Assembly: GCF_022818495.1 (NCBI RefSeq) | Contig: NZ_CP089291.1 | Coordinates: 3,303,501-3,367,500 of the forward strand | DNA length: 64,000 nt | Direction of reading: 5' to 3' | Source: Fodinisporobacter ferrooxydans | GTDB lineage: Bacteria; Bacillota; Bacilli; Tumebacillales; MYW30-H2 | Part shown: piece after piece, positions 48,501 to 50,428 of the stretch | Layout: each line of letters begins with the position of its first letter | Numbering within the stretch: position 1 is the stretch's first letter | Notes under the pieces: model-generated | Database searches by the model: none | What the model was told of the DNA's origin: nothing | What the model saw: the letters and a program-made list of their open reading frames with translations, nothing else | Program-made: the position numbers and the translations under genes

Positions 48501-49445
48501 ATGGACATCCTGCACATCGATCATGGAACACAGGTACGGGTTCTCCCGTCTGTAGTGACAATCGGTAATTTCGACGGAGTACATATAGGACATCAACAAC
48601 TGTTAAAGCGTGCTGTTGAATTGGCAAATCAAAAAGGAATCCGTGCATCTGTCATGACGTTTTCTCCTCATCCGCGGCAAGTTTTGGGGCATGGTACGCA
48701 ATACGACCATTCCCTGACACCCCGATCACAAAAATTGTCACTGTTTTCGAGTATGGGGATTGACTATGTATTTCTGATTAGTTTTACAAAAGAGTTTGCC
48801 AATGTTCCAGCAGAGCAATTTGTGAAGTCGTTTATTTTTGAAAATGAAATCCAGCACGTAATTGTCGGATTTGATTTTACTTTTGGTCCAGGCGGCAAGG
48901 CAAATGCACAAATGCTAAAAGAGATGTGCGCCCCCCGAAACATTCCGGTAGAGATTCTCCCGCCTGTCAATCTGTATGGCGAGAAAGTAAGCAGTTCACT
49001 GGTGCGGGAAAAATTGCAATATGGCGATATCCGTCTGGTTCGGGAATTGCTCGGGCGTCCGTATATGATTTCCGGAAAAGTGGTTCATGGAGAAGGACGG
49101 GGCAGGACGATTGGCTTTCCTACAGCCAATATCGTATTGGAAGATAAATATGTGGAGCCTCGTACCGGCGTGTATGCCGTCAAAGTTGAGTACGATGGTG
49201 CGATTCATAATGGAGTTATGAATATCGGTTTTAAGCCGACGTTTGTTCAGAACAGCAAGCAACTCTCTTTGGAAGTGCATCTTTTTGACTTTCAGGAAGA
49301 TTTATATGATATAAGCATTGAAGTTTACTTCATCGATTTTATCCGACCGGAGCAACGTTTCTCATCTGCGGATGAATTGATATGCCAGATTGGGAAAGAT
49401 TGCAAAGCTGCTTTGGTTGCATTGGAAGAACAGGATTTTCTGTGA
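48501..49445 (+). CDS. ribF: Bifunctional riboflavin kinase/FAD synthetase RibF
   Basis: Makes FMN and FAD from riboflavin. 314 residues: N-terminal nucleotidyltransferase domain with VVTIGNFDGVHIGHQQLLK, GFDFTFGPGGKANAQML and SSLVREKLQYGDI; C-terminal riboflavin kinase domain with GEGRGRTIGFPTANIVLEDK and GVYAVKVEYDG. Preceded by GAGGAGAATC. Last gene of the group before the small two-gene module. Confidence 0.96.
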   Translation: MDILHIDHGTQVRVLPSVVTIGNFDGVHIGHQQLLKRAVELANQKGIRASVMTFSPHPRQVLGHGTQYDHSLTPRSQKLSLFSSMGIDYVFLISFTKEFANVPAEQFVKSFIFENEIQHVIVGFDFTFGPGGKANAQMLKEMCAPRNIPVEILPPVNLYGEKVSSSLVREKLQYGDIRLVRELLGRPYMISGKVVHGEGRGRTIGFPTANIVLEDKYVEPRTGVYAVKVEYDGAIHNGVMNIGFKPTFVQNSKQLSLEVHLFDFQEDLYDISIEVYFIDFIRPEQRFSSADELICQIGKDCKAALVALEEQDFL

Positions 49446-49527
49446 AATCATGTGATTCTAGGACATTCCTCGATGTGAATAGATATTAATGATATGAATG
49501 ATATGACGAATGCTTGCATGTGTTGCT

Positions 49528-49555
49528 TTACTAATGATTCTATGTTTGCTATACT
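49528..49555 (+). promoter_or_regulatory. Promoter of the small two-gene module
   Basis: TTACTA (49528-49533), 16-base spacer, TATACT (49550-49555) with a TGC extended -10. A palindrome TACTAGTA (49552-49559) covers the end of the -10 box, and a second palindrome GTACATGTAC lies at 49594-49603 before the ribosome-binding site. Confidence 0.6.
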
Positions 49556-49624
49556 AGTACACATTGCTAGGCTTCGGACGTTTTCCTGCAACCGTACATG
49601 TACTGTGTGAAGGAGGATGCACCT

Positions 49625-49855
49625 ATGGGCCCGGGCGTTACGAATCATCAAGATGAGCAATTGTTGAATATTTGTCGGGAAGTTGCAAAAATCTGTTGCA
49701 GTTCCGAGTTCAAAAAGTTGTACCGCGAAATGTCGCGCTACTACCGCAAATCGGGAATCATGCATGCAAAACGGATTGCCTATCAAGATGCGCTTTTTTC
49801 GATGGTTATCGAGTATCAACAAGAGTCGAATCATCTCAGGCTGAACTTGATGTGA
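49625..49855 (+). CDS. Small helical protein of unknown function (module gene 1)
   Basis: 76 residues from ATG 49625, with a strong AAGGAGGATG ribosome-binding site at 49610-49619. Predicted helical and basic-acidic mixed (EQLLNICREVAKICCSSEFK, then KLYREMSRYYRKSGIMHAKR), with a Cys-Cys pair near residue 27. No family recognised. The stop is 5 bases before the next gene, so the two are co-translated. Size, order and promoter arrangement resemble an antitoxin gene ahead of a toxin gene, but this is inference only. Confidence 0.7.
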   Translation: MGPGVTNHQDEQLLNICREVAKICCSSEFKKLYREMSRYYRKSGIMHAKRIAYQDALFSMVIEYQQESNHLRLNLM

Positions 49856-49860
49856 TCGCT

Positions 49861-50082
49861 ATGCGGGTCATCGTATCCGGTCATGCTCGCAGACGTTTGC
49901 AAGAAGATCGTCAACGAGGTATTTCTGTCAACGATATTGTCAAAGCTGTTAAGGGGATTCCAGGAACGATCCCGATTGCTACAAGATTTCGCGGATTTGT
50001 CTCGACAAATGGACGCGGATTTGATATTGTTGCTAAGGATATCTTGCAAGGTCGCCTGGTCATTACAGTGATTGGCAAGTAA
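49861..50082 (+). CDS. Small protein resembling DUF4258/RelE-type family (module gene 2)
   Basis: 73 residues from ATG 49861, which follows the previous stop by 5 bases with only a weak ribosome-binding site (translational coupling likely). The pattern MRVIVSGHARRRLQEDRQRG, ISVNDIVKAVKG, a beta-hairpin FRGFVSTNGRGFDIVAKDI and the end GRLVITVIGK follow the layout of DUF4258 proteins, small relatives of RelE/ParE toxins (HAxxRL near the start, final T/V-rich strand). Basic overall. Catalytic activity cannot be judged. The stop codon lies inside the rpsO leader structure. Confidence 0.7.
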   Translation: MRVIVSGHARRRLQEDRQRGISVNDIVKAVKGIPGTIPIATRFRGFVSTNGRGFDIVAKDILQGRLVITVIGK

Positions 50083-50132
50083 CCCAAGCGCGGTGGAGCG
50101 ACGACTCCGACGTCTACTTTGCTTGGGGGGTT
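50081..50132 (+). promoter_or_regulatory. Structured leader of rpsO (candidate S15 autoregulatory element)
   Basis: CCCAAGC (50083-50089) pairs with GCTTGGG (50121-50127), enclosing a GGAG/CTCC hairpin (50095-50108) and further G/C-rich sequence, just before the AAGGAGGTGA site of rpsO. S15 represses its own mRNA through structured leaders in several bacteria; this element fits that position but its class is not proven. Confidence 0.55.
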
Positions 50133-50158: not shown

Positions 50159-50428
50159 GTGGCATTGACGACAGATCGTAAACAAAACTTAATTGGCGAA
50201 TTTAAAGTTCACGACACAGATACAGGATCCCCGGAAGTGCAAATCGCGATCCTGACTGAAAAGATCAATTATTTGAACGAACATTTGCGCGTTCACAAAA
50301 AAGATCACCATTCCCGTCGCGGTCTTTTAAAAATGGTTGGTCATCGTCGTAACTTGTTGAATTATCTTCGGAAAAAAGATGTAACTCGTTATCGTGTGTT
50401 GATCGATAAGCTTGGACTTCGTAAATAA
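50159..50428 (+). CDS. rpsO: 30S ribosomal protein S15
   Basis: Binds 16S rRNA helices 20-22 and nucleates the central domain. 89 residues, standard length, GTG start 50159 with AAGGAGGTGA at 50142-50151. Signatures [40 protein letters not shown] and [16 protein letters not shown] are intact. A strong terminator follows, before pnp. Confidence 0.97.

What the first reader, a model, noticed from the sequence alone, without database searches (positions are those of the whole stretch)
49498..50082. Candidate two-gene toxin-antitoxin-like module between ribF and rpsO
Seen: two small genes (76 and 73 residues) separated by 5 bases, a strong ribosome-binding site for the first only, an extended -10 promoter (TTACTA-16-TATACT) and two palindromes, TACTAGTA over the -10 end and GTACATGTAC before the ribosome-binding site. 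The second protein has the HAxxRL...GI...final TVI strand layout of DUF4258, a family related to RelE/ParE. The first is a helical protein I do not recognise. Known: toxin-antitoxin pairs are autoregulated, two-gene, and tightly coupled. Inference: this is a TA-like or RNA-interacting module embedded between housekeeping genes. The ribosomal neighbour rpsO and the S15 leader overlapping its stop make a role in translation also possible.
Basis: partly seen in the sequence, partly recalled or inferred. Interest (0 to 1): 0.6.

Follow-up and report, generated by a model that had tools for sequence, protein, structure and literature searches.

The report
Toxin-fold protein locked into ribosomal operon
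Two tiny genes that look like a toxin-antitoxin pair are instead an old, inherited part of a ribosomal-protein operon in many Gram-positive bacteria, and one of them is a relative of RelE-type toxins that appears to have settled into an unknown housekeeping job.

Summary
The two genes are real: g1 49625-49855 (76 aa) and g2 49861-50082 (73 aa), behind an extended -10 promoter. They do not behave as a toxin-antitoxin module. In 398 Bacillota genomes g2 occurs in 97 and g1 in 77; all 70 genomes with both have them adjacent. In every bacterial locus I inspected, with both genes or only one, they lie directly upstream of rpsO. g2 is found without g1 in 27 genomes (3 of these copies broken or partial) and g1 without g2 in 7; intact g1-less g2 keeps its invariant residues. 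Distances follow those of the neighbouring genes, so inheritance looks vertical. The promoter and the S15-type leader belong to rpsO: a genome lacking both genes has the same promoter straight before rpsO. The two palindromes occur only in this window. g2 is a sister of DUF4258 (profile-profile 90%; below Pfam's cut-off), and its predicted fold matches RelE/ParE-type (BECR) domains best. g1 is a predicted three-helix protein without known family. Best reading: a housekeeping, RNA- or ribosome-directed BECR-fold protein plus accessory subunit, made from the rpsO-pnp unit. Molecular function is untested. A Moorella phage carries a stray g2 copy. I found no description in print.

The parts
49527..49555 (+). 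Extended -10 sigma-A-type promoter TTTACT-17-TGCTATACT of the g1-g2-rpsO-pnp unit
   Evidence: conserved upstream of g1 in relatives; the same boxes stand before rpsO in G016, which lacks g1 and g2
49610..49616 (+). Shine-Dalgarno of g1 (AAGGAGG)
   Evidence: Sequence
49625..49855 (+). g1: 76-aa protein, predicted three-helix bundle, no known family
49861..50082 (+). g2: 73-aa DUF4258-like protein, predicted BECR (RelE/ParE-type) fold
50083..50127 (+). S15-type leader hairpin before rpsO (outer stem CCCAAGCG/UGCUUGGG)
50159..50428 (+). rpsO, ribosomal protein S15 (GTG start)
   Evidence: PF00312, E 3.7e-38

Best explanation
g1-g2 is an old, vertically inherited pair of small genes placed between the rpsO promoter and the S15 leader, so they are transcribed with rpsO and pnp. 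Shown by sequence: fixed location, co-linearity, strong constraint on g2, occurrence of either gene without the other, homology of g2 to DUF4258. Predicted: BECR fold for g2, three-helix bundle for g1. Inferred: g2 has been taken over from a toxin-like RelE/ParE-superfamily ancestor into a housekeeping role in which its invariant basic/polar residues (H8, R12, R17, Q18, R42, R44, D55, K59, D60, R65, T69, K73) bind, and perhaps cut, RNA on or near the ribosome; g1 is a helical accessory or adaptor, useful but not obligatory; expression is matched to ribosome synthesis through the shared promoter.
For: Location: 80 of 80 g2 loci from the genome-contig scan (86 relatives found, best 80 kept) have rpsO next downstream, 77 of 80 have g1; 20 of 20 further loci, namely 7 of 7 g1-only, 12 of the 27 g2-only and one with both, have the gene(s) between ribF and rpsO. 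Single copy: of 398 genomes each carrier has one match, except one weak second g1 hit, E 2.9e-4. Vertical: distance correlations over 64 loci g2-pnp 0.77, g1-ribF 0.91, g1-g2 0.80, 0 of 500 permutations as high. Selection: 14 of 14 g1-less g2 proteins examined keep H8, R12, R17, Q18, ATRFR, D55, K59, D60, R65 (13 of 14 keep K73). Homology: hhalign to 24 DUF4258 proteins prob 89.9, E 1.7e-6 for that single comparison; reversed control prob 0.3. Fold: pLDDT 96.8; VIA best rows TrmO C-terminal domain Z 7.0 (rmsd 2.7, 66 aligned) and RelE Z 6.4 (3.2, 67), followed mostly by RelE/ParE/HigB/YoeB-type toxin chains. No plasmid hit.
Against: No result shows RNA binding, nuclease activity or ribosome association. 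Z values under 8 can reflect a common arrangement; Foldseek gave no match at E <= 0.001. g2 misses Pfam's DUF4258 cut-off (18.0 vs 25 bits). 301 of 398 sampled genomes lack g2, so it is dispensable in many lineages. One phage carries g2, so it can move. Loci in the distance test were found through g2, which inflates g2 identity.
Confidence: 0.6

Rival explanations
1. A type II toxin-antitoxin module: g2 a RelE/ParE-type toxin, g1 its antitoxin, autoregulated through the palindromes.
For: Two short adjacent genes; g2 related to DUF4258, which Gerdes 2025 lists among 13 BECR toxin families with antitoxin-toxin gene order (PMC11980606, passages read); g1 directly precedes g2 in all 70 of 70 genomes that have both; one phage copy of g2.
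Against: g2 without g1 in 27 of 97 genomes, and no g1 elsewhere in three further genomes without adjacent g1, one of them a small draft; g2 residues stay intact without g1 in 14 of 14 examined; g1 without g2 in 7; fixed chromosomal slot; no plasmid copies; no PADLOC hit; palindromes not conserved; g1 has no known antitoxin family.
Confidence: 0.07
2. g2 is a dedicated regulator of the rpsO-pnp transcript that binds the leader RNA next to its own gene.
For: The leader lies directly behind g2; in the 7 g1-only loci (no g2) it is intact in 1, has lost the inner arm in 3 and is not seen in 3, whereas of 6 g2-only loci looked at 5 keep the motif and one (L206) a variant (by eye and pattern).
Against: Three of four genomes lacking both g1 and g2 keep the inner-arm motif, the fourth a degenerate one; a Firmicutes rpsO leader is known to bind S15 in Geobacillus (PMC4684408, passages). 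Three of the 7 g1-only genomes are one genus, so the correlation may be clade-specific.
Confidence: 0.12
3. g2 is a catalytically dead BECR domain that serves as a protein-protein scaffold (for example in ribosome assembly), with g1 as its partner; no RNA cleavage.
For: Read-through model of g1-g2 from Ammoniphilus resinae gives pTM 0.73 at 151 residues, more than I would expect of two unrelated 70-residue domains (my estimate). Many DUF4258 rows have His in the third strand (IHVVC/LHVVC) where g2 has invariant Asp55 (read by eye).
Against: The many invariant polar and basic residues look like an RNA surface; pTM without an error map does not show an interface; the short linker forces nearness.
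Confidence: 0.2

Closest known systems
DUF4258 (PF14076), BECR-fold family of the RelE/ParE superfamily
   Same: Profile-profile homology over 61 columns: HAxxR, GI/DI helix, closing ITV strand; 52 of 79 g2 members match PF14076 at E <= 0.1
   Different: Below the gathering score; family-specific blocks RQ, PG, ATRFRGF, FD-V-KD, GRLVIT-IGK; fixed at rpsO, whereas genuine DUF4258 genes occur in 17 of 119 genomes (16 over the cut-off), with 7 matches in one
RelE/ParE/HigB type II toxins
   Same: Predicted fold
   Different: Behaves as a vertically inherited operon gene, not as a toxin needing an antitoxin
C-terminal domain of the tRNA methyltransferase TrmO
   Same: Best structural row, Z 7.0, 21% identity over 66 residues; this domain has been proposed to bind tRNA (PMC4132733, passages): precedent for a housekeeping RNA-binding domain of this shape
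   Different: g2 stands alone; it has no DPRxxY motif, which E. coli TrmO needs; no PDB chain matches the g2 profile beyond chance-level rows
S15 (rpsO) leader of Firmicutes
   Same: The RNA between g2 and rpsO; outer stem covaries; S15 leaders of Firmicutes are published (PMC4137082, PMC4684408, passages)
   Different: I did not compare it base by base with the published structure; no Rfam family matches it in the window even at E <= 1

Membership tests
DUF4258 (PF14076) | Score above Pfam gathering cut-off (25 bits) | tested here: not met
   18.0 bits, E 0.0037 for window g2; best of 79 members E 7.5e-4
DUF4258 (PF14076) | Homology by profile-profile comparison | tested here: met
   prob 89.9, E 1.7e-6 against 24 genuine members; controls prob 0.1-0.3. 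Supports a sister family, not membership
BECR fold (RelE/ParE superfamily) | Beta-alpha-alpha-beta-beta-beta fold matching solved BECR domains | tested here: inconclusive
   pLDDT 96.8, right element order; most top rows are RelE/ParE-type chains but Z is at most 7.0 and Foldseek E at best 0.066
Type II toxin-antitoxin module | Two adjacent small genes in one transcription unit | tested here: met
   Adjacency; 70 of 70 genomes with both. Co-transcription is inferred from the layout
Type II toxin-antitoxin module | Toxin gene kept only together with its antitoxin | tested here: not met
   27 of 97 g2 genomes lack a g1 match; residues intact in 14 of 14 g1-less proteins examined
Type II toxin-antitoxin module | Antitoxin from a known DNA-binding/antitoxin family | tested here: not met
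   g1: no NCBIfam or PADLOC hit, only sub-threshold Pfam rows; a new type cannot be excluded
Type II toxin-antitoxin module | Autoregulatory operator palindromes | tested here: not met
   These palindromes in 1 of 90 upstream regions and of a kind expected by chance; promoter shared with rpsO
Type II toxin-antitoxin module | g2 toxic, g1 neutralises | not testable with these tools
   Needs expression experiments
S15 leader | Conserved, covarying RNA structure upstream of rpsO | tested here: met
   14 leaders chosen for a shared register: covariation score 0.299 vs shuffled 0.146 (sd 0.027) and 0.052-0.171 when slid; the count of pairs with double changes (5) was reached by 121 of 500 shuffles. 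RNAalifold on a mixed alignment of 26 found no structure
S15 leader | Binds S15 | not testable with these tools
   Known for Geobacillus from the literature only

The most novel reading that the evidence does not exclude
g2 is a domesticated RelE-type, ribosome-directed ribonuclease or RNA-binding factor that became a core, S15-co-expressed translation or RNA-quality-control protein in early Bacillota, with g1 as its helical cofactor, and phages sometimes pick it up to manipulate host translation.
Probability: 0.3. Interest if true: 0.82.

Novelty: new variant of a known kind. Interest (0 to 1): 0.58.

Why it matters
BECR-fold proteins are known mainly as toxins and effectors (from my own knowledge). 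A relative that is single-copy, vertically inherited and, in the loci compared, about as conserved as S15 and PNPase, inside the rpsO-pnp unit, would be a rare case of such a fold turned into a housekeeping protein, and would give DUF4258, whose function is listed as unknown, a tractable non-toxic relative. It also cautions against calling every small RelE-like gene pair a toxin-antitoxin system.

Tried and rejected
Toxin-antitoxin: rejected as above. Replacement of the A-site RNase Rae1/YacP by g2: tested by co-occurrence in 179 genomes; g2 genomes have YacP more often (41 of 51) than others (58 of 128), so no complementarity (phylogeny not corrected; that YacP is Rae1 is recalled). Link to sporulation: 54 of 56 genomes with g1 or g2 are not among the listed Spo0A-negatives, against 105 of 123 others, but 2 of the 22 negatives were not listed and the test is confounded by phylogeny. 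Leader binding by g2: weak, see rivals. Sequence relatives of g2 or g1 in PDB: only chance-level rows. DUF4895 hit for g1 (17.3 bits, cut-off 25): in 2 of 36 members, treated as noise. Viral contigs: no relative with A4 or with the phage protein. PHROGs: only a chance-level row for g2 (E 0.26). Viral fold library: no match at E <= 0.001. Rfam gave two sub-threshold rows at the 3' end of rpsO. RNAalifold found no consensus on the mixed leader alignment. The window's g1 5' region shows no special fold (z 0.30), and the window's leader alone folds only slightly better than shuffles (z -1.29). Literature: DUF4258, ribF+rpsO combinations, a taxon combination and MTATph1 gave nothing on this pair; of the 8 DUF4258 papers I saw the listing and, for one, passages.

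Full report
What is there. Between ribF (48501-49445) and rpsO (50159-50428) lie two intact genes on the + strand: g1, 49625-49855, 76 aa, and g2, 49861-50082, 73 aa, five bases apart; pnp follows rpsO. The window is base 3,303,501-3,367,500 of a single-contig 4.86-Mb genome.

Distribution and context. g1 was found in 16 of 61 genomes (own and relatives); in all 16 g2 follows and then rpsO; ribF was recognised upstream in 15 of 16 (L016 has an unmatched ORF there). In 299 class-level genomes the same 20 carry both. A scan of genome contigs with the g2 profile found 86 relatives and kept 80, from Tumebacillus, Ammoniphilus, Caldalkalibacillus, Desulfotomaculum, Pelotomaculum, Thermincola, Moorella, Ammonifex and others (two MAGs are labelled Actinobacteria and Deltaproteobacteria, probably mislabelled). 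rpsO follows in 80 of 80; g1 precedes in 77 of 80; pnp is seen in 78 of 80 and ribF in 75 of 80 (in four of the five misses the contig ends too early). In 398 phylum-level genomes g2 is in 97, g1 in 77, both in 70, and all 70 pairs are adjacent on one strand; 27 have only g2, 7 only g1. I fetched all 7 g1-only loci, 12 of the 27 g2-only loci and one with both: in 20 of 20 the gene sits between ribF and rpsO. One of the 12, G366, holds a broken g2 (two stops), and two further g2-only matches (G560, G645) are partial. I read the ribF-g2 gap in 8 of the 12 (63 to 331 bases): the g1 profile finds nothing, though a far-diverged short gene in the longer gaps cannot be excluded. Three other genomes with g2 but no adjacent g1 (L112, a 1.4-Mb draft; L115; L116) have no g1 elsewhere apart from one chance row, E 1.62.

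Inheritance and constraint. Over 64 loci with all five genes complete, pairwise distances correlate: g2-pnp 0.77, g2-ribF 0.78, g1-ribF 0.91, g1-g2 0.80, each with 0 of 500 permutations as high; mean identity g2 74%, S15 72%, PNPase 68%, RibF 49%, g1 47%. The loci were found through g2, so its figure is biased upward; from the window alone the means are g2 64.5%, S15 69.5%, PNPase 64.4%, RibF 40.7%, g1 28.5% (same call). Of 14 g2 proteins from g1-less loci (11 of the 12 fetched, without the broken G366 copy, plus L112, L115, L116), all keep H8, R12, R17, Q18, P34, G35, A40, T41, R42, R44, D55, K59, D60 and R65, and 13 keep K73. A toxin without its antitoxin would be expected to lose such residues.

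Mobility. No plasmid record matches g1 or g2. One of 50,697 phage records does: Moorella phage MTATph1 carries a 47.9%-identical g2 (E 2e-11); its neighbours do not look like g1 by eye. A clostridial g1 finds no phage.

What g2 is. Window g2 scores 18.0 bits against DUF4258 (cut-off 25); 52 of 79 relatives match at E <= 0.1. Against 24 genuine DUF4258 proteins from Bacillota, hhalign gives probability 89.9 and E 1.7e-6 for this single comparison; the reversed g2 profile gives 0.3 and g1 0.1. Searches had given 32 DUF4258 matches; I left out 7 that were short, interrupted or weak, and one more gave no usable frame. The predicted structure (pLDDT 96.8, pTM 0.83) is beta-alpha-alpha-beta-beta-beta. 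VIA rows: TrmO C-terminal domain Z 7.0, RelE 6.4, M. tuberculosis RelE1 6.3 and RelE2 6.2, ParE2 6.0, a CDI toxin 5.8, then YoeB, HigB2, BrnT, the MqsA-MqsR entry and a sequence-specific ribonuclease. All are under Z 8, and Foldseek's best is E 0.066, so the fold call rests on the profile homology and the consistency of the list together. Gerdes 2025 places DUF4258 among BECR toxin families with unknown target (PMC11980606, passages).

What g1 is. No Pfam, NCBIfam, PADLOC or PDB relative above noise. In a read-through model of the Ammoniphilus resinae pair (22 sequences, pLDDT 84.1, pTM 0.73) it forms three helices (5-24, 27-42, 48-68); the linker 67-77 is not predicted. The pTM hints at contact with g2 but no error map was available.

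Regulation. The promoter before g1 is the promoter of the whole unit: conserved upstream of g1 (66 of 83 distinct regions, 6.7% in shuffles; mean best score 10.9 versus 8.1 in shuffles), and found with identical boxes and spacing before rpsO in G016, which has neither g1 nor g2. Between g2 and rpsO lies an S15-type leader: 88 of 99 leaders (80 of 90 distinct) hold its inner loop motif, in 88 of 88 enclosed by at least 8 pairs against 52% with shuffled flanks; in 14 leaders chosen for a shared register the outer stem covaries. Three of four genomes without g1 and g2 keep the motif. So g1 and g2 were inserted or lost between the rpsO promoter and its leader. In 20 clostridial loci picked by eye a hairpin covers the g1 Shine-Dalgarno with some covariation: score 0.214 versus 0.152 (sd 0.018) shuffled, but two of five measures do not exceed shuffles. 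The window does not show it.

Mechanism. Shown: an inherited operon pair whose g2 is under strong constraint and does not depend on g1. Inferred: g2 contacts RNA through its invariant basic/polar residues, most likely on or near the ribosome, because its fold relatives are ribosome-dependent RNases or RNA-binding domains and its synthesis is tied to S15 and PNPase; g1 assists. I put about 0.6 on this and under 0.1 on a working toxin-antitoxin pair. Absence from 301 of 398 sampled genomes shows it is not essential across the phylum.

Novelty. DUF4258-like and BECR relatives are known; a vertically fixed, operon-locked, apparently non-toxic one at rpsO was not found in print by searches, in an open-licence library only.

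Noticed in passing
L250:3995-4222 (OR602862.1 122353-122580, minus strand): Moorella phage MTATph1 encodes a g2 homologue (47.9% identity) away from any rpsO; it keeps H8, R12, R17, Q18, T41, R42, D55, R65 and G72 but changes A40, R44, D60 and the final Lys.
   Followed up: partly
L064, L067, L069, L071, L078, L102 and similar, within about 45 bases before g1: Hairpin AACGTCCC...GGAGACGTT over the g1 Shine-Dalgarno in Desulfotomaculum/Pelotomaculum-type genomes, with compensatory changes: a possible translational switch.
   Followed up: partly
L199, L200, L201 (g1-only, one genus): The rpsO leader keeps its outer stem but its inner arm has shrunk to a short loop; L202-L204 show no leader.
   Followed up: no
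49527-49532 and relatives: The -35 box is mostly TTTAC(T/A) rather than TTGACA across Bacillota (60 of 83 distinct regions), at 17-18 spacing: unusual constancy for a non-consensus hexamer.
   Followed up: no
G406: One genome holds seven DUF4258 matches besides its single rpsO-linked g2: genuine DUF4258 can be multicopy where g2 is not.
   Followed up: no
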